A DNA stretch of 64,000 bases, from contig NC_049979.1 of assembly GCF_000003815.2 (NCBI RefSeq), positions 6,905,735-6,969,734 of the forward strand, in the 5' to 3' direction. The notes under the pieces were generated by a model that saw nothing but the letters and a program-made list of their open reading frames with translations, was not told where the DNA came from and ran no database searches. The stretch's first letter is position 1. The number at the start of each line of letters is the position of its first letter. Positions 2,861 to 41,432 of the stretch are shown piece by piece. The position numbers were made by a program, and so were the translations under genes. The DNA is from Branchiostoma floridae. Taxonomy: Eukaryota; Chordata; Leptocardii; Amphioxiformes; Branchiostomatidae.

Positions 2861-19148
<16,288 letters not shown>

Positions 19149-26232: not shown

Positions 26233-29200
26233 ATGGCGTCGTGTCGTGAGAGACGGCGAGACTCCGACACCAGCCTGCTGCTGGAGGACGAGGAGGACAG
26301 GGAGGAGGACACCGAGGACGAGGACCATATAGAGTAATTCACTTTGGTTTAACGTTGTATCTTCATTGGTGTCGAGTGCTGCTATAACATTCAGGCCAAA
26401 GATGTTGACAGCATGTTTCTGTCAATAAGAATGCTTTGGCGCCATTGACAAGATGCTTCTGACTTCCTATCAATATTTGGGGGGATGGGGGGGGGNNNNN
26501 NNNNNNNNNNNNNNNNNNNNNNNNNNNNNNNNNNNNNNNNNNNNNNNNNNNNNNNNNNNNNNNNNNNNNNNNNNNNNNNNNNNNNNNNNNNNNNNATTGA
26601 TCTAAACTTTAATGGCCATTAATCATGTTAACTTCTGTACCGTTTAAGTCTTTAAATAATCCTCACGTGTACCTGCCCATTGCACATCTTTTACACATCA
26701 GAATCTAATTTCGCCAGGTTTTGCATTGCTTACAGACCTCAGAAAGAGACAATGACTGCAAAGCCAGGTAACATGGGACCCAACATGCAAAATAACTCTG
26801 CAAGGAGGTATGCCGTATCAGTCTAGACAGGAAGTAAAACTGCCAATTGAGTGATTTACATAATTCTGATCATGGAATCAAATCACTGAAGCTGGACATG
26901 ATTTGACTATGATCATTGCTTTCACAGATCTGCATTATCACATCATCAGTACAAACATAAATGTATTGATATTTGACTTTAAGAGTATATACTAGTAAAC
27001 TGTGACAGTGTGTATTGTAAGATGTTTTGTTTAAAAAGTGTTGTGTAAAGAATAAATCATTGATCTGAGACTGTGAGAGTATTTGAGCCTATACCTACCC
27101 CTCAATTACTTATTACCTACCTACCCCTCAATTGATAGATTAATTTTGACAAAGGTTTTTTAAAAATGAATCAAACTTCTTGGCCAAATTTGGATCAAAT
27201 GAAACTATCTATTTTTCTGAACAAGTCATCCCTCCAACAAACCTTCTCATTAAACATTTGGGTACTTGAAGGGATGCTTAGAAGCGTACCTACTGTAGTT
27301 GATTTGTAACCCCATTGATGATTATTGTCCTTGTATCACGACTGTTTCAGGAAAGCTGCTCTCAACATCCTTTTCTGCAAACGTTTCTGGCATCTTCTGA
27401 AGGTCATCTTCCCAAAACTCATTTCACCAACATTTCTCATGTTCTGCACACTTCTGGCTGTTTGTCTGCTGGGTGAGTAAAATTCATTTCATTTCATAAA
27501 AACTCTGACATTGAGAGTTAGAAGGCCTTTGGCTAACAAATACTTATTCTCTACCAGACTCCTGCCCGGCCAAATAGTAATAGTTTGGAATAAAAGCCTT
27601 GTAGGATTTGATTGGCCTAGGAGTAAACTGGCCAGCTGGATAGACTGCAAAAGACTGACTGAAATCCCATGGCATCTTACTATTCTTAGCTTCCATATTT
27701 GGCCAAGTTCTTCTCTTTTTTCATCCAGTGGACATGTCTGCTTGGTGATGAACAAATACCTTATAAAGTTATATCCAAGTAGTTGTTGAATTTGGCTGTA
27801 CTGGAGTCATGATTTTTTGATAAGAATAGAAAGATCACCTCAGTGTGACTGAATGATTATCAAACTTACAATTGACTTATTACCTACATCATAATGTAAC
27901 AATTGCATTATATAGTTAGGCATCTCAGTCTTGTCTGTGTTTCCAGAACAAGTTGTGATTTACCAGACGGGCCTCATCCCCAGCCAGTTTGTGAGGATCC
28001 TGGCTGCAGAGAATCCCCAGAAGTCTGAGTTCATGACCAGACTCTGGCTGTCTCTCATCATTATTGGGCTCAACTCAACAGTAAGAAGGTTTACCTTTGG
28101 AAAACCAGGAAAGATATTAAGTGTTTCTTGCATGATTTGTGTCAATACCTTTGAAAATGTGACTTTGATTTCAAACTATAGAGGATTGAATCTAAATTTG
28201 TTGCCAATGTTTCTTTTCAATGTGTTTCTTGGGTGATTTGAGTTATTACCTCTGAAAATGTGACTTTGATTTCAAACTATAGAGGATTGAATCTAAATTT
28301 GTTGCCAATGTTTCTTTTCAATGTGTTTCTTGCGTGATTTGAGTTAATACCTCTGAAAATGTGACTTTAATTCTAAATTATAGAGGATTGAATCTGCAAT
28401 TGTTGCCAATGTTTCTTTTCAATGTGTTTCTTGCATGATTTGAGTTAATACCTCTGAAAAGGTGACTTTAATTTTAAACTATATAGGATTGAATCTAAGT
28501 TTGATGCCAATGTTTCTTTCCAGCTGAAAAGCCTGGATGGTTACATCAGCAGCCTGATGTATGTGCGATGGCGCCGGCTGATCTGCCACAGACTCCATCA
28601 GAAGTACTTCCAAGACACTGTGTACTACCAGCTCAACGTGCTGCAGGAGAACATGGACAATCCGTACGGACCTGTTCATATTGACTCACTTACAGTCACT
28701 CTGATGTGGTTGCACAACTTACTGCAAATCTTACGATGTTTGCAGTGGTTTAATAATCTCTGTAGAAGTAGTTTCTGTAACCTCTGAACCACATTTGACA
28801 GTTTCCAATGTATTACTACTGGATCACAGAATTGTTTCAAGTGTGAATTAGAACACCGTGAAAAGCTTGTATTAAATTTTCCTCTTTAGTACCACAAAAT
28901 AAAACCACCACAAAAGTAACTTCAGTTACACCACCTTTTATAACAACAGTCTATTTGGGGAGTTGTGAGTGATGGTAAGTGGCATTTATTTGACTTACCA
29001 TTTATCACTGTTACTTAAAATGTTTCCTTTTTTCTTTCTGTACAGGGACCAAAGAATCAGCCAAGATGTGGAGAGGTTCTGTAAGCAGTTCAGTCTGATG
29101 ATAGCTGTGATCATCATCTCTCCCTTTACCATAGGATACTACACATATCAGTGTTATATTAGGTCAGTGTTTAGCATCAAGCCTATGTCTAAGGCAGTAC

Positions 29201-32200
29201 CTTTGATAGGCTGCAAATTGGCTTGAATAAAGTATCCAACTATCCCAATCTTTTATACATCAGTACCTGTATATTTTGCAGTCTAAATTTTTATTTTGAT
29301 GAATGTACAAGGTATTCACTGTATTGTCTGATAATGGCATGCAAATCATTTCATCTACAATGTTGCCTAATCTATTTTGACATCGAAAATTAGATTGTGG
29401 ATCTTGTCAAGTGGAAGATTGCCCCAAGGTCCAATAGTCACCTGACTACATTCAGCTACGTGTGTCTGTGTGTTAGCATATGGCGAAGACAACTACATAT
29501 ACCAGAATGTTAAAAGATTGAAAATGTTTTCTAACTTAACACATGAACATGCATGCCCATTTGTTTGAACCTGTGTCTTACATGTGCTGATGTTACTGTT
29601 CTGTTGTATCTGTGTTTCAGTACCGGATGGCAGGGTCCTGTCAGCATCTTTGTGTACTTTGTGACAGGTACAATCATCAACAGGTTCATCATGTCCCCCA
29701 TAGTGAGCCTCCTGGTCAGACAAGAAAAGCTGGAAGGAGACTTTAGGTACTGTGTGTCAGTTTTATGTAGAAATGGTGATTAACATCTATTGAGCAATCT
29801 TGAATCTAACACTTTTTTATTCAGTGTGAAATGAATGTTTGAAAGCATGGTCAAACCTCACAGGGCTTTCCAGGATTAATTTTTGCCAATGTCAAAGCCA
29901 TCTAGGTGTCCATTTTGAAAGTAACGTACTTCTAAACCTTTTTCCATCTTTTCTCCAGGTTCAAGCACATGCAGATTAGAGTTAATGCTGAATCAGCAGC
30001 ATTCTACAGGTATGAATACAGACTATTTCCTTCTTGTTCAGCACACGAGGATTCACCTAACTTCTCAGGGCTCTGCTTTTGTGTAACCATTCCCCTCTGA
30101 GACAAAGAGGGGAATTCTAAGTATGTCTATATTACTGTGAAGAAAGAAAGAAAGAAAGAACAGAGTTAGCGGTGTTGCTGATCTGCCCTCTCTGCTGCTG
30201 TTCCTGTAGAGCCTGCCAGGTGGAGCTGATGAAGACCAACTTCAGGCTCCACTCCTTACTGGACACACAGAAACGGCTCATAAACAGGGAGTTCTGGCTC
30301 AATTGTAAGTTTTCTGCTTAACTTCTCAAACTTGAATTCAGTTAGATCAATAGCTTGTAAGTTCTGGCAGTTCTTAACACCAAATTGTATAAAGCGGGGT
30401 CATACTACATCACTGACGAAAGACACCGGATGGCTGTCTGAAATGTTTGACCATTTCCAAAATCATATCCTTCATCGACATATTCAGGGTCATACTAGTT
30501 GCTATTTGTGACAATGACTAAAGATAGTGGACCGTTTCGAAAATCATATACAGTTGCTTGAGTAACTGCTTTTTGGCATATCTTATTACCTTAATATCTA
30601 ATCTGCCTCGACCAATGGTAAATGATGAATTTGTTGTCATAAAGATCATTTTTGCATGGTATTTGCGCAGCCAGGTTAAGCACATAGAAATTGAGTCTTG
30701 TATTCTAAGTCATTAACTTAGTTGAAAATATGATATCTTGAGTTGTAAAATACCTAACTGTTTCTCTTGTGTGTGCACAGTTGCAGTGAACATGTTTGAC
30801 TATCTGGGAAGTATCCTGAGCTACATCGTCATTGCCATCCCTATCCTGAGTGGTGCCTACAGCCACATGGCACCAAATGAAATAAGTGCACTTGTCAGCA
30901 AGGTATGGATAGATTCATACCATTCACTAGAGAAGAAACTTTTCTAACTGAGCTTACTGTGTGCCTATGTGATTGAATTGATAGTTGAGCAAGAACTGCA
31001 TTTTGATATTTAATATTGTATATCTAAATAGCCATGCAGAATTGGAGATCCTGTCCTTTAAACTTTAGACTACTGATCCAGCTTCCAAAGGGGAAGTCCA
31101 CTTAGATCAACAGGACTCCTCTAACATTTGATCTAACAGCTGATGCACATGTTCCTGTGCCCTCAGAATGCCTTTGTGTCCATCTACCTGATTGGGTGCT
31201 TCAGCGGGCTGATAGACCTGTCTACCAAACTCACTGACCTGGCAGGCTACACACACAGGTAGGGTATGGTCTTGTGTTCTTGGTCCTCTTAATGTTTGAG
31301 CTAGACACCAACTGCAGGAATGCTGAGAATAACACTAGAGGTAGAAGGTCTTTGTAATCATGCAGATCTGTGACCACTTGAATTTAAGTCAGTCACTTTA
31401 CCTTGATCGTCAAGAGCTTATAAGAATAAAAATGTTAGTAACAGGTACTGTCCATGGTACTGAAACATCGCTATTTGAAGTGTTGAGTATGCCCTAAACA
31501 AGTGCCTGGAAAGCAGGAAATGTTATTTTGATCTACTGAGTGATTAGTGTATAAGCCTGACAGTACTATGCAGCCCTTTTTTGGTTAATCGTTGTAAACC
31601 CCTCCCCCTGACAGGATTGGAGAGCTCCTCGAGTCTCTGGAGAAGACAGAAAAGGGGACAATGGAGGAACAGACCAACCACAGTGCAGACCCTGGGGACG
31701 GCGATCCATCTGAAAATGCAAGGTATACACAAAACTTGTGCTTCTTTCGTAAATACATGCAGTATACAGTATCTCTTGCTGCAAGAAGCATAAAAATTAA
31801 GAAAATAACATATTATGTTGCAATTTTAAACTTAGCATCCATACACAAAATAAAGCACTTACCAACAAACTTTCAATCAGTCCTCTGATAACTTGAATAA
31901 GGATCAGAGGACTGATCGAAAGCTTGTTGGTAAGCGCTTTGTTTTGTGTACAGATGTAAAGTTTAAAATTGCAACATGATGTTGATTACCATCTCCACAT
32001 CTCCAACAAAGAACTTTATGGTCCCCTGCCGCAAGTATTGGCTGTTGTCCGCAGCCGAAGATTGCATCTGGCAGGACACGTGGTGCGCCATGAGGAAATG
32101 GCAGGACAGGTCTTGCTCTGGGAGCCAAACGAGCCGCGCAGGCGTGGCCGCCCTTCGGTCACACTCAGGAAGCTGATGCTCGAGGAAACAGGTCTGGAGG

Positions 32201-35200
32201 CCAACGAACTCCGATCAGTAATGCTGGACAGAAACGAGTGGAGACACTGGTGTCACCTCCCAAAAGAGGATGATCTGAACTGAACGGAACAGATTACCAT
32301 CACAGATATGAACATATTGTACCGATCAAAAAGACATCATCCCCTTCCTCCCTCTACATATATTAGCATCTATTGCCGAAACAGTCTTTGAAAATTATTA
32401 ATCTGTATGTCTGTGAAATGAACTTTTGTTTCTATTTTTCTTGTCAGCCTTTGCAGCAATGAGAGCACACAGAGTAACAAGGCCTTCCAGCTGGAGTCAG
32501 TCACTCTCACACCGCCTTCACTACAGAACAGGGTCCTCATCAGGGGTAAGTCTGTCCTTCTCACACCACCTTCCCTACAGAACAGGGTTCTCATCAGGGG
32601 TAAGTCTGTCACACTCACACCACCCTCACTACAGAACAGGGTCCTCATCAGGGGTAAGTCTGTCACACTCACACCACCTTCACTACAGAACAGGGTCCTC
32701 ATCAGGGGTAAGTCTATCACACTCACACCGCCTTCCCTACAGAACAGGGTTCTCATCAGGGGTAAGTCTGTCACACTCACACCACCTTCACTACAGAACA
32801 GGGTCCTCTTCAGGGGTAAGTCTGCCCCACTCACACCACCTTCCCTACAGAACAGGGTTCTCATCAGGGGTAAGTCTGTCACACTCACACCACCTTCACT
32901 ACAGAACAGGGTTCTCATCAGGGGTAAGTCTGTCACACTCACACCACCTTCACTACAGAACAGGGTCCTCATCAGGGGTAAGTCTGCCCCACTCACACCA
33001 CCTTCCCTACAGAACAGGGTTCTCATCAGGGGTAAGTCTGTCACACTCACACCACCTTCACTACAGAACAGGGTTCTCATCAGGGGTAAGTCTGTCACAC
33101 TCACACCACCCTCACTACAGAACAGGGTTCTCATCAGGGGTAAGTCTGTCACACTCACACCACCTTCCCTACAGAACAGGGTCCTCATCAGGGGTAAGTC
33201 TGCCCCACTCACACCACCTTCCCTACAGAACAGGGTTCTCATCAGGGGTAAGTCTGTCACACTCACACCACCTTCACTACAGAACAGGGTTCTCATCAGG
33301 GGTAAGTCTGTCACACTCACACCACCCTCACTACAGAACAGGGTTCTCATCAGGGGTAAGTCTGTCACACTCACACCACCTTCCCTACAGAACAGGGTCC
33401 TCATCAGGGGTAAGTCTGTCCCACTCACACCACCTTCACTACAGAACAGGGTCCTCATCAGGGGTAAGTCTGAACAACATTGTCATTTGTGGTCAGCATG
33501 TACAGGGCATTCATCTGGTGTCTGGAGAAACTCTGAATAACAGTTTTTCATATTCAAGAGTAAGTGTTCAGAATAGTGCATTTAGTATTCTCAATTATTT
33601 ACAAGTTGCAGTGATGTAAATGTACAAGGGTGCAAAGGATGGCTCACATGTTTTTGTATCTTCAGATCTTAACCTTGAGATTGAGGCTGGAAGAAATTTA
33701 CTTATAGTGGGAAATACAGGTGAGAACAACTCTATTCAACCTATTGTTCAGATTACTGAGTCAATGATAAATGCCAGTACTATACTGAATTATATATCTT
33801 AAATTTCTGCTGTATTTGTTGGACTCCAGAAGGTGGTACGATTGAAAATCGTCAGCGGTTCACCTGAACATTTATCATAGTCAATGGGGCTTGGTAAGCG
33901 GTGAACATTGACTGATACCTAAAATTGCACACTGGCATATAACAGACAACAATGCCATTTAGAGCTCACAGACTTGTCAGCCAATCAATTTTCATTATGT
34001 GTGACAGGGGCTTAAGGATGTGAAGTCATATGTAATTGATTTGGCCAGGTAATGACTTGACTATTTACATGTATCTAACACACCTGAGTATATGTACAAT
34101 ATTTGATATTTGAATATTTTTAATGTTTCCTAAAACAGGCTCTGGCAAAAGTTCCTTACTGAGGGTTTTGAGAGGACTGTGGCCAACCTTAGGAGGTATG
34201 TAAATTTTGTTGTAGTCTCATGGGTTGCAAATGAAAGGTCCTGTTGAGATTCCATTCAGTTTTCTTGACACCGAACTGTAATGACTCTAACACCAATAAA
34301 TACTTACTTTGTGCAACCTCCTTGCTTTGTGCATAGTAGTTATGGTCAAAGTGTTACTGTACTGGTAAGACAGACAAAGACAAGGTGTTCTGATGTTACC
34401 TGATCTTGGGATTGGACTTCATCTTAAGCATCTACATCAACATGGTTTGTATTGTCCACAAGAGGAAATGATGTTAGTAATTGTTTTTAGTGCTGTTTCC
34501 ATCATATTTTCTCTTTGTTGACTCTTTTCCTTGTTCCAACAGGCAGTGTAGAAAGGATCAGCCCACTGGGTCCACAGGGGGTGATGTTTATACCACAAAA
34601 ACCCTACCTGACTGACGGGTCACTCAGGGAACAGGTAAATACAACTCCTGCTTGTTGTCAATATTCCACTTTTCAGCCAGTAGTTGTTTTGAATATACTA
34701 GTAAATGAAGCACTTGATGTTCACAGCTGTCTTCTTAACTTTGCAGATCATATATCCACTTAAAGATAAATACCCAGGTCAAGGTGAGTCTCTCTTTAGC
34801 TAAATCACTCCCAGTACAACCTAAACTGGCTTGTGTGTTTTGTATGTCGTAGTGATTACAAAAGAACCACAGAAAGGATAAGTCCTTTACTGTTGACTGT
34901 AAGGGAGAAAATCTAGGCTATATATGCTGTACATGTGTCTGGCCACTTTTTCTACAGATGTTACAGATACACGCACATGAAACTTATGATGCAAGAAGAT
35001 AGTACTAGTATGTCATTGTGACAGATAACAGATTGAATGGCATCTTATAACCCCACCTACCAGCAAAATGTATTACTGGTGGAAGGGAAAGATGAACAGG
35101 AGAGTACTACAATACTGTTGTATTTGCCTTTCAGTTTCCCCTGATGATGGGATAATCATGCAATATTTGGAAAGGCTAGAACTGGTAAGATTGCAAACCT

Positions 35201-39592: not shown

Positions 39593-39682
39593 CCAAATCA
39601 GGAGCCTGTGTGGTTGCCTTCCATATACGGGGGCTACTTCTGCGAATGCGTTTCTAAAATCTTCAGGTGTCGGTGTATAAAA
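39593..39682 (+). promoter_or_regulatory. Actin promoter: two CArG-like boxes and a TATA box
   Basis: CCAAATCAGG (39593-39602) and CCATATACGG (39621-39630) each differ by one base from the SRF site CC(A/T)6GG. TATAAAA lies at 39676-39682, 93 bp before the ATG. Paired CArG boxes upstream of a TATA box are the classic actin promoter plan (established for vertebrate and ascidian muscle actins). Confidence 0.65.
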
Positions 39683-39765
39683 ACGGACCGGACCGCCCTG
39701 ATCTTCACTGCGGTCCAAGACTTTCCAGGTTCTTCTCCCAGTTTCAGTGGTGCTACCAAGTCTAA

Positions 39766-41432
<1,667 letters not shown>

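What the first reader, a model, noticed from the sequence alone, without database searches (positions are those of the whole stretch)
32448..33475. Eighteen tandem copies of a splice donor at the end of ABCD4 exon 12
Seen: the last 46 nt of exon 12 plus GTAAGTCT of the intron are repeated at exact 54-bp spacing, so 18 identical AGGG|GTAAGT donors lie in series (first GT 32546, last 33464). The ABCD4 frame stays open across the array and 54 is a multiple of three. Splicing from donor n to exon 13 (33666) would therefore keep frame and insert (n-1) x 18 residues of [18 protein letters not shown] between the membrane domain and the ATPase domain. Each unit also has an acceptor-like CTTCACTACAG, though the 35-nt intervals are too short for ordinary introns. 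Inference: this is either a natural ladder of protein-length isoforms or a robust redundancy of one donor, and copy number probably varies between haplotypes. It may be an undescribed way to make a tunable linker.
Basis: partly seen in the sequence, partly recalled or inferred. Interest (0 to 1): 0.85.

Follow-up and report, generated by a model that had tools for sequence, protein, structure and literature searches.

The report
Amphioxus "mirage" repeat duplicating splice donors
In what appears to be a lancelet genome, the end of one exon of a probable vitamin B12-transporter gene, splice signal included, is repeated 18 times in a row; this kind of repeat is already known in lancelets and is most likely removed with the intron, although here using a later copy would keep the reading frame.

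Summary
In detail: 18 identical AGGG|GTAAGT donors lie at exact 54-bp spacing (GT 32546 to 33464), and the ABCD4 frame stays open through them. A partial 15-exon gene model supports ABCD4: 481 aa without a stop, 569 bits to ABCD4 in the PDB, colinear at the junction when donor 1 is used. The kind is known: amphioxus minisatellites spanning exon-intron boundaries, "mirages", vary in copy number and are reported not to disturb splicing (PMC3087553, PMC3902484; passages seen). I found the same architecture at eight other coding-exon ends among 16 loci of a truncated genome listing. In those eight only 13 of 129 later donors would keep an open frame, so first-donor use is presumably the rule there; ABCD4's open frame fits the roughly 2 in 9 expected by chance. 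Human ABCA7 is the nearest RNA precedent: about 24 tandem donors, one-unit retention 2±1%, and exon skipping that grows with array length (PMC5954066). I read the array as an intronic mirage spliced mainly from donor 1, with rare +18-aa leakage. A functional "tunable linker" is not excluded but lacks support. No transcripts were available.

The parts
32448..32545 (+). ABCD4 exon 12 when spliced at donor 1 (98 nt, ends in phase 1)
   Evidence: Gene model E2-E16 open over 481 aa; colinear with PDB ABCD4 at the junction
32500..32553 (+). Source segment of the repeat: last 46 nt of exon 12 plus GTAAGTCT (54 nt); detectable similarity starts at 32495
32495..33472 (+). 54-bp minisatellite, 18.1 copies; 17 units after the exonic one, 10 distinct types, with a 4-unit block (units 10-13) repeated as units 14-17
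32546..32551 (+). Donor 1 (GTAAGT), the donor proposed to be used in most transcripts
   Evidence: Only this choice gives the ABCD4 junction without an inserted repeat
32600..33469 (+). Donors 2-18, GT at 32600 and then every 54 bp up to 33464; each would add 18 aa in frame per step
32527..33445 (+). Acceptor-like CTACAG ends, one per unit (first base after each AG: 32527, then every 54 bp); paired with the donor of the preceding unit they would give 35-nt introns, with the donor two units back 89-nt introns; the products (19 + 54k nt) are out of frame
   Evidence: positions; frame arithmetic is mine
33473..33665 (+). Rest of intron 12, outside the array, up to the exon 13 acceptor
   Evidence: Similarity to the unit stops after GTAAGTCTG
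33666..33719 (+). Exon 13 (54 nt) encoding [18 protein letters not shown] and part of the next Gly, running into the Walker A motif (motif recalled); skipping it would keep frame but cut that motif

Best explanation
The array is an amphioxus "mirage": a minisatellite whose 54-bp unit is the last 46 nt of ABCD4 exon 12 plus the first 8 nt of intron 12. An initial tandem duplication across the exon-intron boundary was followed by expansion, including at least one multi-unit duplication, as in other minisatellites. Each unit carries the donor passively. I infer that most pre-mRNA is spliced from donor 1, the only one that makes a normal 98-nt exon and an ABCD4 protein without extra repeats, so that units 2-18 leave with the 1,120-nt intron. 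A small fraction probably uses donor 2 (+18 aa in frame). Exon 13 skipping is a second expected error. Shown: the anatomy, the open frame, the block duplication, and sister arrays at other exon ends in the genome. Inferred: donor choice, leakage and neutrality.
For: (1) Anatomy as in published mirages: a tandem unit straddling an exon-intron boundary, exon on one side, intron on the other (PMC3087553). (2) Published cases: RT-PCR of globins and the Adh3 data suggest no interference with regular splicing, and copy number differs between haplotypes (6 and 3 in BflGb6); PGBD5 and the TnC case it cites likewise. (3) Sister arrays: of 16 loci in the truncated listing of GGTAAGT x3 arrays, 9 (ABCD4 included) lie at the 3' end of a coding exon. 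In the other 8, only 13 of 129 later donors keep an open frame, so later donors are unlikely to be the main sites there. (4) Turnover: 10 types in 17 units, with a 4-unit block duplicated; 5 of 5000 shuffles reach a block that long. (5) No significant coding selection among units: 5 synonymous and 5 non-synonymous changes, expected synonymous share 0.30, P = 0.15. (6) Donor 1 gives a junction colinear with ABCD4 of known structure. (7) Human ABCA7 RNA: the GT of the first 25-bp unit is the exon 18 donor, and of the two frameshifting isoforms the one-unit retention is given as 2±1%.
Against: ABCD4 is the only one of the nine coding arrays in which every later donor (17 of 17) is in frame and open. 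Pairwise differences between units fall mostly at third codon positions (214 of 364), although these are few mutations copied through the array. Donor 18 would leave a short 202-nt intron, a length that can favour recognition across the intron (recalled principle), and all 18 donors are equal in sequence. No transcript was examined. The ABCA7 precedent is not of harmless splicing: exon 19 skipping was 12±6% in LCL, 29±12% in hippocampus and 45±10% in BA10, another cryptic site was used at 14±6%, and in 90% of BA10 cases alternative forms together exceeded the canonical one.
Confidence: 0.83

Rival explanations
1. A functional isoform ladder: donors 1-18 are used in varying proportion and the 18-residue repeats act as an adjustable linker before the ATPase domain.
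For: All 17 later donors are in frame and open; each unit re-supplies the segment before DLNLEI ([16 protein letters not shown] with minor variants), so the start of the ATPase domain is kept whichever donor is used; the donor sequence is identical in all copies.
Against: An in-frame, open array is expected by chance in about 2 of 9 such arrays (inference: period a multiple of three, 1/3; exon not ending in phase 2, where GG TAA is a stop, 2/3). Most later donors of the sister arrays cannot work this way (116 of 129). The unit shows no significant excess of synonymous change. ABCD4 of known structure has no insertion here.
Confidence: 0.07
2. Intron definition: the donor nearest exon 13 (donor 18) is preferred, giving a 1,016-nt exon 12 and a protein with 306 extra residues.
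For: The intron would be 202 nt, similar to the four shorter introns of the gene model (112 to 264 nt), and the frame is open.
Against: The exon would be seven times longer than any other modelled exon (at most 140 nt). Later donors at the sister genes would in most cases give frameshifts or stops. In ABCA7 the first donor is the canonical one.
Confidence: 0.05
3. Assembly artefact: the copy number, or the array itself, is wrong.
For: An amphioxus array is known to have been assembled wrongly in a draft genome (BflGb6, passage). No reads were available.
Against: Units carry 10 distinct sequences in an ordered pattern, there is no gap nearby, one place in the genome matched, and similar arrays occur at other exons. 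Copy number may still be off or allelic.
Confidence: 0.05

Closest known systems
Amphioxus 'mirage' minisatellites (Adh3, BflGb6/BflGb9 globins, TnC, PGBD5; passages of PMC3087553 and PMC3902484; the original Canestro et al. 2002 not held, known only from these papers)
   Same: Tandem units spanning an exon-intron boundary and carrying splice signals, in amphioxus genes; partial homogenisation of units
   Different: Here 18 copies with a 54-bp unit, all in frame and open; copy-number variation and normal splicing are reported there and not tested here
Human ABCA7 intron 18 VNTR (25 bp, 23.7 copies in the reference; passages of PMC5954066)
   Same: The GT of the first unit is the exon donor, so copies follow in series; also an ABC transporter gene, with the skipped exon in an ATPase domain
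   Different: The unit starts at the GT and is intronic, not mostly exonic; 25 bp is out of frame, so one-unit retention gives a premature stop; a different gene and position
Intron gain by tandem genomic duplication (PMC4974935, seen only as a search listing with the start of its abstract)
   Same: Tandem duplication of gene sequence that brings donor- and acceptor-like signals side by side
   Different: There a new intron arises from a duplication; here an existing donor is repeated, and the in-array introns would be 35 or 89 nt and out of frame

Membership tests
Amphioxus mirage minisatellite | Tandem repeat units span an exon-intron boundary of a coding gene | tested here: met
   46 nt exon + 8 nt intron repeated x18 at the ABCD4 exon 12 end
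Amphioxus mirage minisatellite | Units carry splice signals (many, not all, in published cases) | tested here: met
   18 of 18 units end in AGGG|GTAAGT
Amphioxus mirage minisatellite | Located in an amphioxus genome | tested here: inconclusive
   Genome unnamed; 513,431,437 bases in 431 contigs, consistent with the B. floridae reference size as recalled; no species label seen
Amphioxus mirage minisatellite | Copy-number variation between haplotypes | not testable with these tools
   One assembly only; a single place matched
Amphioxus mirage minisatellite | Regular mRNA splicing not disturbed | not testable with these tools
   No transcripts held; sister arrays suggest first-donor use
Amphioxus mirage minisatellite | Homogenisation and block turnover of units | tested here: met
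   Units 10-13 = units 14-17; 5 of 5000 shuffles reach a block that long
ABCD4 (lysosomal cobalamin transporter) | Best match to ABCD4 over membrane and ATPase parts | tested here: met
   E 7.7e-170, 568.9 bits over query 3-480; the next differently named molecule has 285.4 bits; Pfam ABC_membrane_2 and ABC_tran. The 3' part of the gene was not modelled
Selected coding repeat / linker | Excess of synonymous change among units | tested here: not met
   5 synonymous of 10, expected share 0.30, P = 0.15; low power with 10 changes

The most novel reading that the evidence does not exclude
ABCD4 is a mirage that by chance is fully in frame, so leaky use of donors 2-18 makes a real, low-level ladder of transporters lengthened in 18-residue steps, with length set by inherited or somatic copy number. 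Amphioxus would then hold a natural system in which splice leakage through a minisatellite turns repeat length into protein length.
Probability: 0.12. Interest if true: 0.7.

Novelty: new member of a known kind. Interest (0 to 1): 0.36.

Why it matters
It adds a very clean case of a known but little-studied amphioxus feature: 18 donors equal in sequence, evenly spaced, in one intron, with every outcome readable in frame. That makes it a natural ruler for how a spliceosome chooses among equal donors, a question usually put with artificial constructs (recalled). The sister loci suggest mirages are numerous: nine coding-exon ends in about 67 Mb of two contigs, found with one strict motif. They may therefore be a general source of splicing noise, copy-number variation and possibly new introns in amphioxus, and a parallel to the human ABCA7 risk VNTR.

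Tried and rejected
Codon-level selection in the units: tested and not significant. In-array introns: considered. The 35-nt pairs are very short; donor n to the acceptor two units on gives 89 nt; in either case the product is out of frame. The acceptor-like sites are T-poor (3-4 T in 17, against 3-12 in 14 real acceptors of the gene) but not poorer in pyrimidines overall (12-13 against 10-16). They are possible as low-level noise and rejected as the main path.

Motif enrichment as proof: GGTAAGT x3 arrays give 1,054 matches, against 256, 327, 378, 704 and 708 for five letter permutations. It is the highest of six but only 1.5-fold over the two best controls. Matches count copies, not loci, so I do not use this as proof. 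By-eye locus counts on contigs C1 and C2 are 16 for the donor motif (listing truncated at C2:31.84 Mb), against 12 (about half of them simple repeats), 7 and 3 for the three controls that were listed; the other two controls gave counts only.

A wider census with CAGGTAAGT did not complete, nor one with GGGGTAAGT. A literature search for identical competing donors found no paper with all four terms. Canestro et al. 2002 is not held under its DOI or PMC number; one search used a DOI recalled wrongly. No structure prediction was run.

Full report
What is there. The window (contig C1:6905735-6969734 of an unnamed 513,431,437-base genome in 431 contigs) carries a 54-bp minisatellite at 32495-33472, 18.1 copies at 94% matches. 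Eighteen identical AGGG|GTAAGT donors sit at exact 54-bp steps, GT at 32546 to 33464. The 14 nt from -6 to +8 of every donor are identical. Similarity to the unit begins at 32495-32500 inside exon 12 and ends after GTAAGTCTG of the last copy. The unit is thus the last 46 nt of the exon plus 8 nt of intron; the rest of the exon lies upstream of the array and the rest of the intron downstream.

The gene. I joined 15 exons (E2-E16, 27351-34783) by GT-AG signals; the result is open over 481 aa. It matches ABCD4 of known structure with E 7.7e-170 and 568.9 bits over residues 3-480 (PDB 24ve and 24vc; 6jbj 568.3; human as I recall, the listing gives no species); the next differently named molecule, ABC transporter D family member 1, has 285.4 bits. 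Pfam gives ABC_membrane_2 and ABC_tran. With donor 1 the junction reads ...[35 protein letters not shown], colinear with PDB ABCD4 there apart from one residue; the linker before it, coded by exons 11 and 12, aligns with more gaps. The first coding exon and the 3' end were not modelled.

What using later donors would do. Donor n adds (n-1) x 18 residues; exon 12 would grow from 98 to 1,016 nt and the intron shrink from 1,120 to 202 nt. Donor strength does not separate the copies: the predicted U1 pairing is -10.3 kcal/mol, fifth best of the 15 modelled donors (U1 end recalled). Exon 13 is itself 54 nt and codes for the residues running into the Walker A motif, so skipping it would be in frame but would cut that motif.

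Is the open frame meaningful? Among the 17 units after the exonic one, 10 of 54 sites vary, 5 synonymous and 5 not (expected synonymous share 0.30, P = 0.15; the other forward frames give 3 of 10 and 2 of 10). Pairwise differences favour third positions (214 of 364), but these are the same few mutations copied through the array. Another forward frame and one reverse frame are open too. The unit order shows turnover: ten types in 17 units, units 10-13 repeated as 14-17; 5 of 5000 shuffles reach a block that long.

It is a known kind. The amphioxus globin paper (PMC3087553; [quoted passage not shown] The PGBD5 paper (PMC3902484; passages) adds 60-bp and 108-bp examples and cites Adh and TnC. No paper of the library held both 'ABCD4' and 'amphioxus', and none of the ten listed (of 176 with two of its three terms) contains ABCD4; most subscription papers are not held, so this array could be in print elsewhere.

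Sister arrays in the same genome. I searched for three GGTAAGT at 35-65 bp spacing: 1,054 matches, of which the tool listed only the first, ending at C2:31,844,504. By proximity and by eye I group the listed ones into 16 loci; 15 were fetched and the 16th is ABCD4. Nine of the 16 lie at the 3' end of a coding exon, judged from a frame that I chose by eye and then searched: ABCD4; L062 dynein heavy chain (PDB E 3.5e-6; no Pfam hit); L063 dynein AAA_9 (1.4e-5); L064 TALPID3 (7.1e-5); L069 GOST_TM (3.8e-18); L074 STI1/HOP DP (3.6e-4), with ubiquilin-1-like 0.026; L075 signal peptide peptidase (1.2e-10); L076 copper monooxygenase (0.0071, weak); L073 Kelch_1 (5.8e-8; a first peptide of its unit alone had given only an unrelated 0.14 hit). 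Four of these Pfam matches (L063, L064, L074, L076) are below the curated cut-off; the peptides are short, and ABCD4's own exon 12 peptide, scanned with them, had no Pfam hit. L062 and L063 lie 32 kb apart on the same strand and may be one dynein gene. The other seven (L065-L068, L070-L072) look by eye like dispersed or satellite repeats and were not tested for coding, apart from one miscopied L066 peptide. Later donors that keep an open frame: L062 1 of 17, L063 2 of 27, L064 0 of 4, L069 0 of 14, L073 10 of 36, L074 0 of 5, L075 0 of 7, L076 0 of 19, together 13 of 129; ABCD4 17 of 17. Donors were counted as GGTAAGT and by a unit-end motif (37 donors in L073, where TRF gives 40.9 units). Using most later donors would ruin these proteins, so first-donor use is the rule I infer. 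Five of the nine main periods are multiples of three (54, 36, 33, 51, 54; the others 46, 59, 58, 28), not notable against one third.

Expected by chance. The copied part is mostly exon, so it is open whenever the period is a multiple of three; the intronic GTAAGT brings a stop (GG TAA) only for exons ending in phase 2. About 1/3 x 2/3 = 2/9 of mirages should thus be open ladders by chance (inference). One complete case in nine, ABCD4, is what chance gives.

Nearest RNA precedent. In human ABCA7, the GT of the first 25-bp VNTR unit is the exon 18 donor, with 23.7 units in the reference. Retention of one unit is given as 2±1% of transcripts and did not change with array length; skipping of exon 19 rose with length and reached 45±10% in BA10, and in 90% of BA10 cases alternative forms together exceeded the canonical one (PMC5954066, passages). 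By analogy I expect ABCD4 to use donor 1 mostly, donor 2 rarely, and possibly to skip exon 13; the analogy also warns that a long array need not be harmless.

Control for the motif. Five permutations of GGTAAGT under the same spacing gave 256, 327, 378, 704 and 708 matches. The donor motif is highest (1,054), but matches count copies rather than loci, so this is only a hint.

Verdict. A real and pretty feature, of a kind already described in this animal group; a new member with 18 in-frame copies. The linker hypothesis stays open only as a low-probability case that one RT-PCR would go far to settle.

Noticed in passing
window 28121-28524: A second boundary array in the same gene: four 101-bp units fill most of intron 3, and the last runs into the exon 4 acceptor (CAG|CTG); the three upstream copies read CAA where the true acceptor has CAG. 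It may show that decoy acceptors are not tolerated while decoy donors are.
   Followed up: partly
L062 621-989: A 31-bp x 12 array whose joined units hold CAGGTGAG, about 300 bp before the next 36-bp repeat copies of the dynein locus: probably another donor array in the same gene.
   Followed up: no
L073 591-2674: A 51-bp x 40.9 array at a Kelch exon end (TRF); of the 37 unit-end donors matched, 19 are GTGAGT, 9 GTAAGT, 7 GTTAGT and 2 GTCAGT, the array with most copies among the nine coding ones.
   Followed up: partly
window 31960-32283: Open stretch in intron 11 with a weak transposase match (DDE_5, E 0.0039, below cut-off), possibly a mobile-element remnant just upstream of exon 12.
   Followed up: partly
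window 39766-40392: Actin gene downstream of ABCD4 (Pfam Actin, 258 bits) with a 300-aa open frame antisense to it (39634-40536).
   Followed up: no
window 12102-12709: A 151-bp x 4 array whose unit starts near TTTGGTAAG; I did not look for an adjacent exon beyond reading the sequence.
   Followed up: no
control listing, e.g. G000:C4:1368314 and G000:C9:12799960: Some arrays found with a non-donor control motif also show CTTACCTG or TTACCTGG (reverse-complement donor-like) in their units, suggesting boundary arrays may be more common than the GGTAAGT count shows.
   Followed up: no
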